Shown here: positions 10,982-28,778 of the stretch, piece after piece
How the letters are laid out: each line of letters starts with the position of its first letter
How positions within the stretch are numbered: position 1 is the first letter of the stretch
Origin: Paludibacter sp.
GTDB lineage: Bacteria; Bacteroidota; Bacteroidia; Bacteroidales; Paludibacteraceae
NCBI GenBank assembly: GCA_028692715.1
Contig: JAQUWU010000046.1
Coordinates: 1 to 36,764, forward strand
DNA length: 36,764 nt
Direction of reading: 5' to 3'
The notes under the pieces: model-generated
The model's database searches: none
Seen by the model: only the letters and a program-made list of their open reading frames with translations
Told to the model about the DNA's origin: nothing
Made by a program: the position numbers and the translations under genes

Positions 10982-12322
10982 ATGATAGACAATTCTCTTT
11001 TCAACAATAAAAAAGTTGCATTTCATACACTGGGTTGCAAGCTTAATTTTGCAGAAACTTCTGCCATTGGCAAACAGCTTTTTGATGAAGGTTTTGTAAA
11101 AGCAAAGCCAGGTGAGCAAGCTGATGTTTGTATTATAAACACCTGTTCGGTAACCGATACAGCCGATCATAAATGCAGACAAGCAATAAACAGGTTAAAT
11201 CGCTTGCATCCTAATGCAATTATGGTGGTAACAGGATGTTATGCTCAACTCAAACCCGATGAAATAGCTAATATAGAAGGTGTTGACTTAGTGTTGGGCG
11301 CTAACGAAAAGTTCAGCATTCTCGATTATCTGAACAAATCGGATAAAACAAAAATTCACCGAACCGAAATAAATAAAGTAACGGAATTCAAGCCATCCCG
11401 TTCAAGCGATGACCGCACCCGTTATTTTCTGAAAGTTCAGGATGGTTGCGATTATTTCTGCACTTATTGTACTATTCCATACGCACGTGGCAAAAGTCGC
11501 AATGCATCTATTGCCGAAACAGTAAAATCGGCGAGACAGGCGATATCTGAAGGTGCAAAAGAAATCGTTTTATCAGGAGTAAATACAGGTGATTTTGGTA
11601 AATCAACCAATGAAACATTTATAGGTTTAGTGGAAGCTTTGGATGCAATACCTGAAGATATTCGTTTTCGCATTTCTTCCATAGAGCCAAATTTACTGAC
11701 AGATGAATTAATCGAATTTGTATCGAAAAGCCGACACTATATGCCCCATTTTCACATTCCATTACAGTCTGGGTCTAATGAAGTGTTGAAGTTGATGAAA
11801 AGACGTTATAACACTGAACTTTTTGCCCAAAAAGTTTCAACGATAAAAAAAATAATGCCCGATGCATTTATTGGTGTTGATGTAATTGTGGGAGTACGAG
11901 GTGAAACGAATGAACATTTCGAAGAAGCAAGAAATTTTATTGCATCGTTGGACATTTCGCAACTTCATGTTTTTAGTTATTCAGAACGTGCCGGAACAAA
12001 AATGTTGGAAATTGACCATCCGGTTTCCAATCAGGAACGCAAAAGACGTAGCGATATATTGCATATACTTTCAGATGAAAAAATAAAAGTATTTTACGAA
12101 AAACAAATTGGGAAAACAGTGAATATACTTTGGGAAAGCCAACATAATGCTGACTTTATGGTCGGTTTTAGCGATAATTATATTAAAGCTGAACGACTAT
12201 ACGACAAATCATTGGTAAATACCGTTCAACAAGTGAAACTGGATTGTTGGAATAATGAGAGAAATGCATTAAAAATAGCACCTCACCCCGACCCTCTCCT
12301 TAAGGAGAGGGAGCAAGCGTAA
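10982..12322 (+). CDS. mtaB: tRNA t6A37 C2-methylthiotransferase MtaB
   Basis: 446 residues. It is a radical-SAM enzyme that adds a methylthio group to N6-threonylcarbamoyladenosine at position 37 of ANN-decoding tRNAs. The N-terminal UPF0004 domain holds the cysteines for one 4Fe-4S cluster (C19, C55, C86; TLGCKLNFAE, INTCSVTDTAD). The radical-SAM cluster motif is C156, C160 and C163 in DGCDYFCTYCTIPYARGKSR. INTCSVTDTADHK separates MtaB from MiaB and RimO. A TRAM-like domain closes the protein. The last 15 or so residues (APHPDPLLKEREQA) are not family sequence; they are encoded by the hairpin repeat at 12281-12317, so the original stop codon appears to have been replaced. The next gene starts 177 bp downstream. 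Confidence 0.93.
   Translation: MIDNSLFNNKKVAFHTLGCKLNFAETSAIGKQLFDEGFVKAKPGEQADVCIINTCSVTDTADHKCRQAINRLNRLHPNAIMVVTGCYAQLKPDEIANIEGVDLVLGANEKFSILDYLNKSDKTKIHRTEINKVTEFKPSRSSDDRTRYFLKVQDGCDYFCTYCTIPYARGKSRNASIAETVKSARQAISEGAKEIVLSGVNTGDFGKSTNETFIGLVEALDAIPEDIRFRISSIEPNLLTDELIEFVSKSRHYMPHFHIPLQSGSNEVLKLMKRRYNTELFAQKVSTIKKIMPDAFIGVDVIVGVRGETNEHFEEARNFIASLDISQLHVFSYSERAGTKMLEIDHPVSNQERKRRSDILHILSDEKIKVFYEKQIGKTVNILWESQHNADFMVGFSDNYIKAERLYDKSLVNTVQQVKLDCWNNERNALKIAPHPDPLLKEREQA
12281..12317 (+). repeat. CCCTCTCC hairpin repeat, copy 2, inside the mtaB coding end
   Basis: ACCTCACCCC tract, then CCCTCTCC (12292-12299), loop TTAA, and GGAGAGGG (12304-12311). It matches copy 1 at 7494-7513 in stem and in the preceding tract. 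It is read through as the C-terminal codons of mtaB and may act as a weak transcript end. Confidence 0.75.
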
Positions 12323-25642: not shown

Positions 25643-27076
25643 TTACCTCTTTACATATAAATCATGTAATTTTTTGGCATACTCAATACATCTAGGATTA
25701 GATTTGTCAATCAAACGGGGATCTAATTTAGGAATACGAATCAATGCACCAACAGGAATTTTATCTGGATCATCAAATCTATCCATGTTGGCTTCGTATA
25801 TATACACCCAAAAATCAGAAAGACCATAATACTTTTTTGACATCCATGCCAGTCGACTTCCATTTGTTATTTGTTCACTGGCAATATATTCAGGATATAC
25901 TCTAGCAGTGTCAAATAATACTTGAAGACTATCCTCTGACTCTGTAACATTTGTATCTACAGTGGCTGTATCTTTAGGAATTATAACCGTTTCGATTTTC
26001 GCCGTGGGTTGTTTTTTATCTAAATCAATCCAATCAGAAGCATTTTTCACTAAATCAGAAAAAGAAGTATTCAGTTTCTCGATTTTTGTTATAAATGAAT
26101 TCTCATTCTTTGTTGTTGATAGAATCGAAAAATAAAGAATCGCTAAAACTCCTATAATAAATAATGAAATGATAGGGATAAGCCACAGTTTCCTCTTTTT
26201 GTGTTGTTTTGGAGCTACAAAAACGGGAGCATTATTAGTTTCTGGCTTTGAATCCGTGTTTTCAATTTCTATAGTAGATTCTGTGCTATTTTCAACGAAA
26301 GTTTCAATGGTTAAGCTTTCGGCCTTACCTCCATCAGAATCGTTTTCATGAATATGTTCTTTTTCTTCAACTATTTCTTCTTCAACTATTTCATCTTCAA
26401 CAACATCATCCTCTTCAACATCTTCTTCCTCAACATCATCCTCTTCAACATCATCTTCATCAACATCATCTTCATCCTGTTCGGTTTCAACTATTTCCGA
26501 TTTATCCTCAACAATACTTAAAGTATCAACTTCATAGTGGAAATTTTCAGTATCTGATACTTCAGAGCTTTCAAGCTTAGAAACGGCTGATAAAGCATTT
26601 ATTTCAGAAAGAAGATCTTTTATCTCAGATGCCTGTTCCGTAAATATTCGTAGTGGTTCAGGGACGTCATCCTGTTCATCTTGAATTAAAGGTTCTTTTA
26701 CAGATTCCTTTATTGGATCTTTTTTATCGTCAACATTCGGCTCATCTTCCCCATCAAGCCTTACGGATTCCAAATGTGCAAATGGTTCATTTACTAATTC
26801 TTTTAACAAACGTTCCGGAGCAAAATTCACTTTATAATAACCATCAATAATAAAGTCCTCACCAGTTTGTACATTAACACTCTTTCTTGGAGCATTCCAT
26901 TGAAGTTTAAACGTTCCGAAACCTTTGACCTTAACTGTTTCACCAGCCAACAAAGCTTCTTCGATGGTTGCAATCATTACTTTCAGAAATTCTTCTGCAG
27001 CACGTTTACTAACCGATGCTTTTGTTGCAACTAGGTCAATAATCTCTTGAGAGGAAATTTTTTCTTTACTGTTCAT
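25643..27076 (-). CDS. HU-family DNA-binding domain fused to a transmembrane helix and LysM domain
   Basis: 477 residues in four parts. Residues 1-97 are an HU/IHF-type domain (VKVKGFGTFKLQW, then a beta-arm PRKSVNVQTGEDF, then VNFAPERLLKELVN). About 98-290 is a long acidic linker with a five-residue repeat (EEDDV, EEEDV) at 197-240. Residues 292-320 are KKRKLW followed by a single transmembrane helix. About 395-450 is a LysM-like domain (GSRLAWMSKKYYG ... YEANMDRFDDPDKIPVGALIRIPKL). The basic residues before the helix predict that HU stays in the cytoplasm and LysM faces the periplasm and peptidoglycan. The beta-arm lacks the usual proline in RNPxTG (here VNVQTG). It overlaps the preceding small HU gene by 11 bp. 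Domain calls are strong; a tethering role is inference. Confidence 0.88.
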   Translation of the reverse strand: MNSKEKISSQEIIDLVATKASVSKRAAEEFLKVMIATIEEALLAGETVKVKGFGTFKLQWNAPRKSVNVQTGEDFIIDGYYKVNFAPERLLKELVNEPFAHLESVRLDGEDEPNVDDKKDPIKESVKEPLIQDEQDDVPEPLRIFTEQASEIKDLLSEINALSAVSKLESSEVSDTENFHYEVDTLSIVEDKSEIVETEQDEDDVDEDDVEEDDVEEEDVEEDDVVEDEIVEEEIVEEKEHIHENDSDGGKAESLTIETFVENSTESTIEIENTDSKPETNNAPVFVAPKQHKKRKLWLIPIISLFIIGVLAILYFSILSTTKNENSFITKIEKLNTSFSDLVKNASDWIDLDKKQPTAKIETVIIPKDTATVDTNVTESEDSLQVLFDTARVYPEYIASEQITNGSRLAWMSKKYYGLSDFWVYIYEANMDRFDDPDKIPVGALIRIPKLDPRLIDKSNPRCIEYAKKLHDLYVKR

Positions 27077-27359
27077 GGTGCGGTAAATCTTTAAGTTTCT
27101 CTTTTAAAATATTACTCTGTTTAAAATTCACTACCAGCTTTGGGGGAATTAAAGTTCGAATTTGTGTTGCAGGATGAACTGAAAGGCGTTCATCTTTTTT
27201 TCTCACTTCAAAATTTCCGAAACTTTGAAAACCAATTGTTTTTTCATCAACCAACAATTCAGTACAGGTTACAATCGTAGTTTCCAGTAAATTTTCAACC
27301 ACCGATTTTGGTGCGTTCATTTTGGAAGCCATACTGGCAATTAGTTCTTTGTGGTTCAT
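27066..27359 (-). CDS. Small HU/IHF-family DNA-binding protein
   Basis: 97 residues, the usual HU size. HU-type proteins bind and bend DNA as dimers. The N-terminal helices (KELIASMASKMNAPKSVVENLLETTIVTCTELL) and the turn GFQSFGNFEVRK mark the family. The arm is divergent: the usual R-x-x-R-x-G-R-N-P pattern is replaced by KKDERLSVHPATQ, though a proline remains near the tip. It lies 81 bp after rimO and its 3' end overlaps the HU-LysM gene by 11 bp, so the two are probably translated together. A heterodimer with the membrane-anchored HU domain is plausible, but this is inference. Confidence 0.87.
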   Translation of the reverse strand: MNHKELIASMASKMNAPKSVVENLLETTIVTCTELLVDEKTIGFQSFGNFEVRKKDERLSVHPATQIRTLIPPKLVVNFKQSNILKEKLKDLPHHEQ

Positions 27360-27369
27360 AATATTTGAA

Positions 27370-27395
27370 GCCCCTAAATCCCCTAAAGGGGACTT
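27370..27395. repeat. CCCCTAAA repeat, copy A (inverted relative to copy B)
   Basis: A 26-bp element with internal palindrome TCCCCTAAAGGGGA. It matches 25 of 26 positions of the reverse complement of copy B at 27451-27476. The two face each other across the rimO-HU gap and could form a long hairpin in the transcript. Confidence 0.85.
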
Positions 27396-27440: not shown

Positions 27441-28778
27441 TTATTTCTTTAAGTCCCCTTTAGGGGATTTAGGAGCCTCCCCGTATAAATCGAAATCGTT
27501 TGCATCTACAATTTTAGCCTGATAGAATTCTCCAATTTTTATTCCTTTTGTTGTTATTGGTATCAGTACTTCCGGATCAACTTCAGGCGAATCATATTCA
27601 GTTCTTCCCACAAAATATTCATCTTCTACCCTATCAATTATCACTTTCAGGGTTTTACCTATTTTTGATTGATTAATATCGGCTGAGACTCCCTGTTGAA
27701 GAGTCATAATTTCATTCACACGCTGATTTTTAACCTCATCAGAAATATCATCTTTATATGTTTTGTAGGCAAATGTTCCTTCTTCATTCGAAAATGCAAA
27801 AGCGCCTAATCGCTCAAAACGAGCTTTCAGAATAAACTCTTTCAATTCTTCCACATCAGCTTCAGTTTCTCCGGGATGTCCAAGCAATAGTGTCGTTCTC
27901 AAATGAATATCGGGCACTTCAGTTCTTATTCTGTCAATCAGCTCATAGGTTTGCGCTTTGGTAATATTACGTCTCATTAACTTCAACATATTATCACTCA
28001 CATGTTGTAAGGCAATATCCAGATAATTACACACGTTCTCACGTTCACGCATCACTTTCAATAAATCATAAGGGAATTGAGCCGGATAGGCATAATGTAA
28101 TCTCAACCATTCTACGCCCGGAATATCTGAAAGTCTCTGAGTCAACTCAGCCAATTTTAATGTTTTATATCGATCCTGTCCATAATAAGACAAATCCTGC
28201 GCAATCAATTGAAATTCCTTCACTCCTTTTTCCACCAAACTCTTTACCTCGTTTTCGATATCTTCCATCGAACGTGATCGATGTTTTCCGGCAATAATAG
28301 GAATAGCACAATAAGAACAGGTACGGTTACAACCTTCAGAAATTTTTATATAAGCATAATGATTCGGCGTTGTCAATATTCTCTCCAATCTCAAATCAGC
28401 TCGATATTCCTGACCAATTTCTTTGAGAATATCGATATAATTAAACTTTCCGTAGAATTTATCTACTTCAGGAATTTCCAGACTCAATTCTTTCAGATAA
28501 CGCTCGGAAAGGCAGCCCATCACGAATAATTTTCCGATTTTATTCTGTTTTCTTAATTCTGCAAATTGTAATATTGTATTTATGCTTTCTTCTTTTGCAT
28601 CACCAATAAATCCACAGGTGTTTACAATGACTATCTCACCATTGGGATTTTCAGCATCGTGCCTTACAGTATAACCCAATGCATCAAACTGACGCATCAA
28701 CTGCTCGGAATCAACCAGATTCTTGGAACAACCAAGCGTAATAACATCAACTATTCCTTTATTCTTTAAATTTTTCAA
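27441..28778 (-). CDS. rimO: Ribosomal protein S12 methylthiotransferase RimO
   Basis: 445 residues. It is a radical-SAM enzyme that adds a methylthio group to the conserved aspartate of ribosomal protein S12. The UPF0004 domain has C17, C55 and C89 (TLGCSKNLVDSEQLM is the RimO signature). The radical-SAM cluster is C150, C154 and C157 in EGCNRTCSYCAIPIIAGKHRSR. A TRAM domain ends with KIVDANDFDLYGE. The start must be TTG at 28778: the next in-frame Met lies beyond the essential GCSKN motif and an in-frame TAA sits five codons upstream. The final residues APKSPKGDLKK are encoded by the 26-bp repeat at 27451-27476, so the native stop was lost or replaced. It follows ftsY by 125 bp. Confidence 0.94.
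   Translation of the reverse strand: MKNLKNKGIVDVITLGCSKNLVDSEQLMRQFDALGYTVRHDAENPNGEIVIVNTCGFIGDAKEESINTILQFAELRKQNKIGKLFVMGCLSERYLKELSLEIPEVDKFYGKFNYIDILKEIGQEYRADLRLERILTTPNHYAYIKISEGCNRTCSYCAIPIIAGKHRSRSMEDIENEVKSLVEKGVKEFQLIAQDLSYYGQDRYKTLKLAELTQRLSDIPGVEWLRLHYAYPAQFPYDLLKVMRERENVCNYLDIALQHVSDNMLKLMRRNITKAQTYELIDRIRTEVPDIHLRTTLLLGHPGETEADVEELKEFILKARFERLGAFAFSNEEGTFAYKTYKDDISDEVKNQRVNEIMTLQQGVSADINQSKIGKTLKVIIDRVEDEYFVGRTEYDSPEVDPEVLIPITTKGIKIGEFYQAKIVDANDFDLYGEAPKSPKGDLKK
27451..27476. repeat. CCCCTAAA repeat, copy B, inside the rimO coding end
   Basis: Same 26-bp element as copy A in inverted orientation, with internal palindrome TCCCCTTTAGGGGA. It encodes the C-terminal tail of RimO before the TAA at 27441-27443. 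Confidence 0.85.

What the first reader, a model, noticed from the sequence alone, without database searches (positions are those of the whole stretch)
25643..27359. Membrane-anchored HU protein with a LysM domain, overlapping a second HU gene: a possible nucleoid-to-cell-wall tether
Seen: an HU/IHF-type domain, a 200-residue acidic linker, a positively flanked transmembrane helix and a LysM-like domain in one 477-residue protein. An ordinary-sized HU protein overlaps it by 11 bp. Known: HU dimers bind DNA, LysM binds peptidoglycan, and positive charges before a helix stay in the cytoplasm. Inference: the protein could link chromosome and cell wall, with the small HU as its dimer partner. Both HU arms are unusual: one lacks the tip proline, the other lacks most arginines. 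A heterodimer may therefore be the DNA-binding form.
Basis: partly seen in the sequence, partly recalled or inferred. Interest (0 to 1): 0.75.

Follow-up and report, generated by a model that had tools for sequence, protein, structure and literature searches.

The report
Two-gene HU–LysM nucleoid-to-wall link
A bacterium related to Paludibacter carries a DNA-packaging protein that appears to be built into its inner membrane with a cell-wall-binding tip outside, encoded right after a second small DNA-packaging protein, which suggests a dedicated two-part tie between chromosome and cell wall.

Summary
The 477-residue protein (25643–27076, minus) has an HU domain, a 186-residue acidic linker (net charge −58), one basic-flanked hydrophobic helix and a C-terminal LysM. 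Pfam LysM misses it, but a LysM model of NCBIfam (below its curated cut-off), a PDB profile search and a fold search point to LysM. The small HU gene overlaps it by 11 bp.

The new evidence is comparative. Of 123 distinct full-length HU-TM-LysM proteins, 123 have an HU gene directly upstream (106 overlap by 4, 8 or 11 nt), against 0 of 21 HU-CCDC81 genes and 0 of 6 lone HU genes. They come from Bacteroidales (98) and one family of another class (25), with different neighbouring genes. In a tree all membrane HUs form one clade and all small HUs another, so the pair arose once and was inherited or moved as a unit. In Bacteroidales the membrane HU has lost the tip proline (93 of 98 V/I) while the small HU keeps it (96 of 98).

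Best reading: an obligate HU heterodimer tied through the membrane to peptidoglycan. DNA binding, wall binding and dimerisation are inferred. Closest precedents: HU-CCDC81–SPOR proteins (one is in the same genome) and, in layout, HubP/FimV.

The parts
25643..27076 (-). Large protein: HU – acidic linker – TM – LysM, 477 aa
26789..27052 (-). HU domain of the large protein (residues 9–96); arm tip N-V-Q-T-G instead of N-P-x-T-G
   Evidence: PF00216 E 9.6e-20; own-genome search; columns
26219..26776 (-). Acidic, mostly disordered linker (residues 101–286; net charge −58, pI 4.05)
   Evidence: pLDDT under 50 for 109–139 and 168–292
26585..26656 (-). Helix inside the linker (residues 141–164, EPLRIFTEQASEIKDLLSEINALS), conserved among close relatives, role unknown
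26132..26209 (-). Basic flank KQHKKRK and transmembrane helix (residues 290–315; modelled helix 295–322)
25724..25888 (-). LysM domain (residues 397–451), predicted periplasmic
25649..25696 (-). C-terminal helix after LysM (residues 461–476)
27066..27359 (-). Small HU gene, 97 aa, predicted partner
   Evidence: PF00216 E 1.4e-17; an HU gene is adjacent in 123 of 123 relatives
27066..27076 (-). 11-bp overlap of the two reading frames, consistent with translational coupling
   Evidence: overlap lengths in relatives

Best explanation
The two genes make one unit: a small soluble HU subunit and a membrane-bound HU subunit that pair as a dedicated heterodimer. The large subunit's long acidic tail keeps the DNA-binding pair away from the membrane, its helix crosses the inner membrane with the N-terminus inside, and its LysM domain in the periplasm grips peptidoglycan. 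The unit would thereby tie the nucleoid to the envelope, as an anchor or landmark for chromosome placement or segregation. Shown by computation: the domain order, the hydrophobic helix and its charge pattern, the LysM match, and the strict, single-origin pairing of the genes. Inferred: heterodimer formation, DNA binding, peptidoglycan binding, and the cellular role.
For: Domains. Pairing: 123 of 123 distinct full-length fusions have a same-strand HU gene immediately upstream (overlap 8 nt in 73, 4 nt in 22, 11 nt in 11; gaps of 1–29 nt in 17), against 0 of 21 HU-CCDC81 loci and 0 of 6 lone-HU loci. The pair persists with different neighbours: rimO upstream in 66 of 98 Bacteroidales loci; in 25 loci of family f41 an aconitase-like gene in 13 and an FAA-like gene in 6 (gene names read by eye). 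One origin: in a tree of a sample, all membrane HUs one clade (100/97), all small HUs one clade (97/91); separate pairing in each lineage rejected (p-AU 0.00027 for Bacteroidales, 0.014 for f41). Distances of the two HUs correlate beyond RimO (partial r 0.39, n 68 of 98) and MoxR (0.46, n 54 of 98), about as much as the two ends of the large protein do (0.41, 0.51). Topology: helix score over 1.6 in 122 of 123; more net positive charge before than after the helix in 107 of 122. Arms: tip proline in 1 of 98 large but 96 of 98 small Bacteroidales HUs. The same set of parts (periplasmic LysM, TM, acidic cytoplasmic stretch) is documented in FimV/HubP, and in P. putida FimV the LysM is needed for binding sacculi (PMC12918733, abstract and passages).
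Against: The HU domain of the large protein is weakly acidic (net −1, pI 6.3); group medians are −2 (large, Bacteroidales), 0 (large, f41) and −2 (small, f41), against +5 (small, Bacteroidales), so strong DNA binding is not assured; R58 is kept in only 8 of 25 small f41 HUs. The correlation of distances is modest, its permutation null ignores the tree, and the LysM end also correlates with the small HU (partial 0.33 and 0.22), so the excess for the HU domain is small with RimO as control. 15 of 122 helices do not show more positive charge before than after (4 equal, 11 fewer). No LysM fold match reaches E 0.001; Pfam LysM recognises only 3 of 24 members, and the NCBIfam LysM match is below that model's cut-off. 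The fusion is patchy: at least 28 of 198 sampled genomes of the order, none seen in other orders of the class in a 395-genome phylum sample, so it is not a general need of the phylum.
Confidence: 0.5

Rival explanations
1. A membrane-bound regulator: LysM senses the state of the wall, and the HU pair changes DNA shape at particular promoters, so the protein signals rather than tethers.
For: One-chain topology like membrane-bound one-component regulators (recalled: CadC, ToxR); long flexible linker. In 41 of 98 Bacteroidales loci the pair lies between rimO and moxR.
Against: HU binds DNA with little sequence preference (established knowledge); neighbours differ in f41, so no common target gene is suggested.
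Confidence: 0.15
2. A polar or division-site landmark like HubP/FimV in which the HU domain is mainly a pairing or docking module and DNA binding is lost.
For: Parts as in HubP/FimV; acidic HU domains and lost tip proline; conserved linker helix that could recruit clients.
Against: In Bacteroidales core HU positions are kept in both chains (G48 98 of 98 in each; F50 96 and 85 of 98; R58 93 of 98 in each) and the small partner keeps the tip proline.
Confidence: 0.2
3. The two HUs are merely co-transcribed; each works as a homodimer and the large one tethers DNA alone.
For: HU homodimers are common (established knowledge); no heterodimer was modelled here.
Against: 123 of 123 adjacency through changed neighbourhoods, one origin, overlapping frames, correlated distances.
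Confidence: 0.1
4. LysM here binds something other than peptidoglycan, for instance potassium, as the closest solved relative Kbp does.
For: Kbp is the best match in sequence and fold.
Against: The next natural match is the sugar-binding LysM effector Ecp6 (8.5e-5; solved with a GlcNAc tetramer); predicted place next to the wall.
Confidence: 0.1

Closest known systems
HU-CCDC81_bac – SPOR proteins of Bacteroidota (Pfam PF18174 + PF18175 + PF05036)
   Same: HU-fold domains at the N-terminus, a hydrophobic stretch, and a peptidoglycan-binding type domain at the C-terminus; one is in the same genome (L115). A chromosome-partition role was predicted by Burroughs et al. 2017, Cell Cycle (recalled; paper not held).
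   Different: Those scanned carry two HU domains in one chain and SPOR (11 of 11) and have no HU gene beside them (0 of 21); their hydrophobic stretch is weaker (over 1.6 in 7 of 21, the rest 1.09–1.60). The window protein has one ordinary PF00216 HU domain, ends in LysM, and its second HU is a separate gene.
HubP / FimV polar landmark proteins
   Same: Periplasmic LysM-like domain, TM region, long acidic cytoplasmic stretch; in P. putida FimV the LysM is needed for binding sacculi (PMC12918733, abstract and passages).
   Different: Reverse chain order (LysM first), TPR/FimV domain instead of HU.
Rv3852, membrane-anchored nucleoid-associated protein
   Same: A nucleoid protein held in the membrane by a C-terminal helix and linked to wall synthesis (PMC8233713, abstract).
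   Different: Annotated as H-NS rather than HU, no wall-binding domain mentioned in the abstract, known only from M. tuberculosis and close relatives.
IHF / HU heterodimers
   Same: Two different HU-fold chains; both window domains score best against IHF-alpha among NCBIfam models, below its cut-off.
   Different: IHF and HU are soluble and neither chain is membrane-bound; IHF genes are normally unlinked (recalled).

Membership tests
HU/IHF superfamily (PF00216) | Match over the whole profile above the curated cut-off | tested here: met
   71.1 and 64.1 bits against 22.4
HU/IHF superfamily (PF00216) | Arm-tip proline that intercalates into DNA | tested here: not met
   Large HU: V in the window, P in 1 of 98 Bacteroidales (but 25 of 25 in f41); small HU: P in 96 of 98
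HU/IHF superfamily (PF00216) | Dimer that binds and bends DNA | not testable with these tools
   No multimer prediction or binding assay
LysM domain | Pfam LysM above cut-off | tested here: not met
   No match for the window protein; 3 of 24 members at E ≤ 0.1
LysM domain | β-α-α-β fold and similarity to solved LysM domains | tested here: met
   Strands 397–402 and 445–449 around two helices; Kbp 3.1e-9, Ecp6 8.5e-5; best fold matches are Kbp, but at E 6.7e-3 and above
LysM domain | Binds peptidoglycan/GlcNAc | not testable with these tools
   Needs a pull-down with sacculi
HU-CCDC81–SPOR | PF18174 and PF18175 domains in tandem | tested here: not met
   Window protein matches neither at E ≤ 10; PF18175 matches 12 of 24 members at E ≤ 0.1, best 6.1e-5
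HU-CCDC81–SPOR | SPOR domain at the C-terminus | tested here: not met
   No SPOR match; LysM instead
HubP/FimV | C-terminal FimV (TPR) domain | tested here: not met
   No such match in Pfam or NCBIfam scans

The most novel reading that the evidence does not exclude
Some Bacteroidota tie their nucleoid directly to peptidoglycan with a dedicated, obligate HU heterodimer whose one subunit spans the membrane, and run it beside a second, independently built HU-based link (tandem HU in one chain with a SPOR tip). HU pairing plus a wall anchor would then be a recurring bacterial design for placing chromosomes, used here in place of the polar anchors known from other phyla.
Probability: 0.4. Interest if true: 0.82.

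Novelty: new variant of a known kind. Interest (0 to 1): 0.64.

Why it matters
In the listings of my paper searches I saw no factor described that physically holds the nucleoid to the wall in this phylum. If the pair works as read, two genes would give a direct, testable chromosome-to-wall link, show that HU, a very common bacterial DNA packager, has been recruited as a membrane anchor, and offer an asymmetric HU dimer (one tip proline per pair in Bacteroidales) for study of DNA bending. It also shows how annotation can miss it: Pfam LysM does not recognise the domain in the window protein, so the gene can pass as an ordinary HU.

Tried and rejected
Rejected: that the LysM call was wishful. 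Pfam LysM misses it, but other lines agree. Rejected: a one-off fusion or assembly error; all 23 of 23 genus-mates have a match to this protein, 21 with both ends in one frame and two (G008, G020) cut by contig ends. Rejected: separate pairings in the two classes (AU tests). Undecided: whether the second class's membrane HUs are one clade (p-AU 0.43), hence whether the patchy distribution means many losses or transfer of the pair. A test whether all large and small HUs together form one clade against ordinary HU did not finish and was not repeated. Considered and not adopted: potassium sensing as in Kbp; phage origin (PHROG matches are to the HU and LysM domains apart).

Led nowhere: literature searches listed no paper on an HU–LysM fusion; I saw listings only, some of them the top of longer lists (20 of 25, 15 of 3,319, 12 of 50, 12 of 15), the library is open-licence only, and the 2017 HU-superfamily paper is not held, so whether it lists LysM fusions is unknown. 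The name of family f41 could not be obtained (codes carry no names); Balneolaceae is a guess from memory. Gene names rimO, moxR, bat, aconitase and FAA are read by eye or by short motifs, not from a family search.

Rows dropped before counts: 11 relatives' loci in which my two-profile test did not find both domains (L027, L075, L079, L089, L091, L097, L108, L109, L120, L187, L191), several of them cut by contig ends; 28 repeated fusion ORFs and 1 without a start (152 to 124 to 123). Near-identical relatives remain, and 50 of the 123 are Paludibacteraceae by title or the window's own family f1. Loci L192–L230, fetched later, were not in these counts.

Full report
What is in the sequence. On the minus strand lie a rimO-like gene (27441–28778), a small HU gene (27066–27359), a large gene (25643–27076) whose start overlaps the small gene's end by 11 bp, and, after a 254-bp gap, a moxR-like gene and a bat-like cluster (these neighbour names read by eye). 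The nearest titled relatives are Paludibacter MAGs, so the window is from Bacteroidales, most likely Paludibacteraceae.

The large protein. Residues 9–96 are an HU domain (PF00216, E 9.6e-20). Residues 101–286 are strongly acidic (70 D/E, 12 K/R, pI 4.05) and modelled with low confidence except for a helix at 141–164 that is conserved among close relatives. KQHKKRK and a single hydrophobic helix follow (residues 290–322), then a stretch ending in a compact domain at 397–451 and a last helix. Pfam LysM does not match the window protein and matches 3 of 24 members of alignment A1. NCBIfam's LysM model PRK11198 matches the window protein at 1.6e-5, below its own curated cut-off, and all 24 of 24 members. 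A profile of the region matches Kbp at 3.1e-9 and the LysM effector Ecp6 at 8.5e-5 among solved structures. The region alone is modelled with mean pLDDT 89.8; its two best Foldseek matches are Kbp entries, followed by phage and contractile-injection baseplate proteins and LysM effectors, all at E 6.7e-3 or above. I take the LysM fold as well supported, the ligand as untested.

How widespread. All 23 of 23 genus-mates have a match, 21 with both ends in one frame and two cut by contig ends. In the order, at least 28 of 198 sampled genomes (own included) carry a fusion that passed my two-profile test, spread over many families. Titled hits fall in Paludibacteraceae, Tannerellaceae, Prevotellaceae, Porphyromonadaceae and Bacteroidaceae. 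In a 395-genome phylum sample none was seen in other orders of the same class: the four same-class genomes with a match at E ≤ 1e-20 show HU-sized frames only. One family of another class, f41, has it: 49 of 145 genomes sampled from that class match, all 49 in f41, with open frames of 340–584 residues; two f41 genomes looked at more closely, G108 and G116, show only single HU-sized frames. The tool gives f41 no name.

The pair. From the 191 loci then held, two profiles found 152 fusion ORFs, 124 distinct, 123 with a start. Each of the 123 has an HU gene directly upstream on the same strand, 73 overlapping by 8 nt, 22 by 4, 11 by 11, and 17 separated by 1–29 nt. The HU profile was built partly from such small HUs, but adjacency was not part of the search. 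Controls: 0 of 21 HU-CCDC81 loci and 0 of 6 lone-HU loci have an HU neighbour. The pair is kept while neighbours change: by motif, rimO upstream in 66 of 98 Bacteroidales loci (10 more are cut short, 22 show no motif), against an aconitase-like gene in 13, an FAA-like gene in 6 and neither in 6 of 25 f41 loci.

One origin. A tree of 70 HU domains (18 of 98 Bacteroidales pairs, 14 of 25 f41 pairs, 6 single HUs; few columns for so many rows) puts all large HUs in one clade (100/97) and all small HUs in another (97/91). Trees in which each lineage made its own pair are rejected (p-AU 0.00027 and 0.014). Whether the pair is ancient and often lost, or moved between lineages, is open: the Bacteroidales large HUs sit inside those of f41, but a separate f41 clade is not rejected (p-AU 0.43). 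Distances between large and small HUs correlate after allowing for RimO (0.39, 68 of 98 pairs) or MoxR (0.46, 54 of 98), about as strongly as the two ends of the large protein with each other (0.41, 0.51); the LysM end and the small HU correlate less (0.33, 0.22). That is modest, and the permutation null (0 of 500 as high) does not respect the tree.

The arms. In Bacteroidales the tip proline is V or I in 93 of 98 large HUs and P in 1; the small HU has P in 96 of 98. In f41 both have P, 25 of 25 each. The Bacteroidales heterodimer would thus carry one intercalating proline, an asymmetric pair. The window's small arm keeps R53, K54, K55, R58, R68 and K74, so the remark that it lacks most arginines is only partly right. 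Charge is a caution: the window's large HU domain is net −1 (pI 6.3), the small HU +2 (pI 8.8), and the f41 medians are 0 and −2.

Topology. The helix exceeds 1.6 on the Kyte–Doolittle scale in 122 of 123 (the other, L031, 1.53); the net charge before it is greater than after in 107 of 122, equal in 4, lower in 11; mean +3.1 against −0.2. By the positive-inside rule this puts HU inside and LysM in the periplasm.

A second system in the same cell. The genome also encodes a protein with HU-CCDC81_bac_1, HU-CCDC81_bac_2 and SPOR (L115). Ten of ten relatives scanned, out of 20 loci fetched, have the same three domains. So that type holds two HU domains in one chain with a SPOR tip, and the window type splits the two HUs over two genes with a LysM tip. 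A caveat found on checking: with the same test only 7 of 21 of those proteins have a stretch above 1.6 (own copy 1.73; the rest 1.09–1.60), so their membrane helix is less sure than that of the window type. All 6 of 6 genomes of the order in the phylum sample have the CCDC81 type over its cut-off. A partition role for that family was predicted in 2017 (recalled; not held).

Mechanism. I consider a nucleoid-to-peptidoglycan tether through an HU heterodimer the best explanation (0.5). In P. putida FimV a periplasmic LysM on a membrane protein with an acidic cytoplasmic stretch is needed for binding sacculi and for polar anchoring (PMC12918733, abstract and passages), and Rv3852 is a nucleoid protein held in the membrane that affects wall synthesis (PMC8233713, abstract). 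The next likeliest readings are a landmark that has lost DNA binding (0.2) and a wall-sensing regulator (0.15).

Novelty. HU plus a wall domain in one chain is a known, predicted kind; the LysM form with its own HU partner gene, its single origin and its presence in two classes were not among the papers listed in searches. Hence: new variant of a known kind.

Noticed in passing
window 27371–27395 (+) and 27451–27475 (−): Two inverted copies of a 25-base repeat lie just before the small HU gene; the second is inside the end of rimO and encodes residues near its C-terminus (PKSPKGD). The genome has 16 copies with up to 2 mismatches, 0 for the reversed control.
   Followed up: partly
window 26585–26656 (−): A helix (EPLRIFTEQASEIKDLLSEINALS) inside the acidic linker is conserved among close relatives; a loose motif for it is found in 36 of 98 Bacteroidales and 0 of 25 f41 proteins. 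It could be a docking site.
   Followed up: partly
L115:1330–2226 (+): Own-genome protein with HU-CCDC81_bac_1, bac_2 and SPOR and a hydrophobic stretch of score 1.73: a second HU protein with a wall-binding type tip.
   Followed up: yes
L005 (G000:C12:66512–66676): A fifth HU match in the genome covers only positions 3–57 of the profile in a 134-residue frame.
   Followed up: no
L120: In one same-order genome (G433) the HU-bearing 462-residue protein keeps a small HU gene before it but its C-terminus does not pass my LysM profile.
   Followed up: no
window 10982–12322 (+) and 27441–28778 (−): Two radical-SAM methylthiotransferase-type genes of the MiaB/RimO group in one window, read by eye only.
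   Followed up: no
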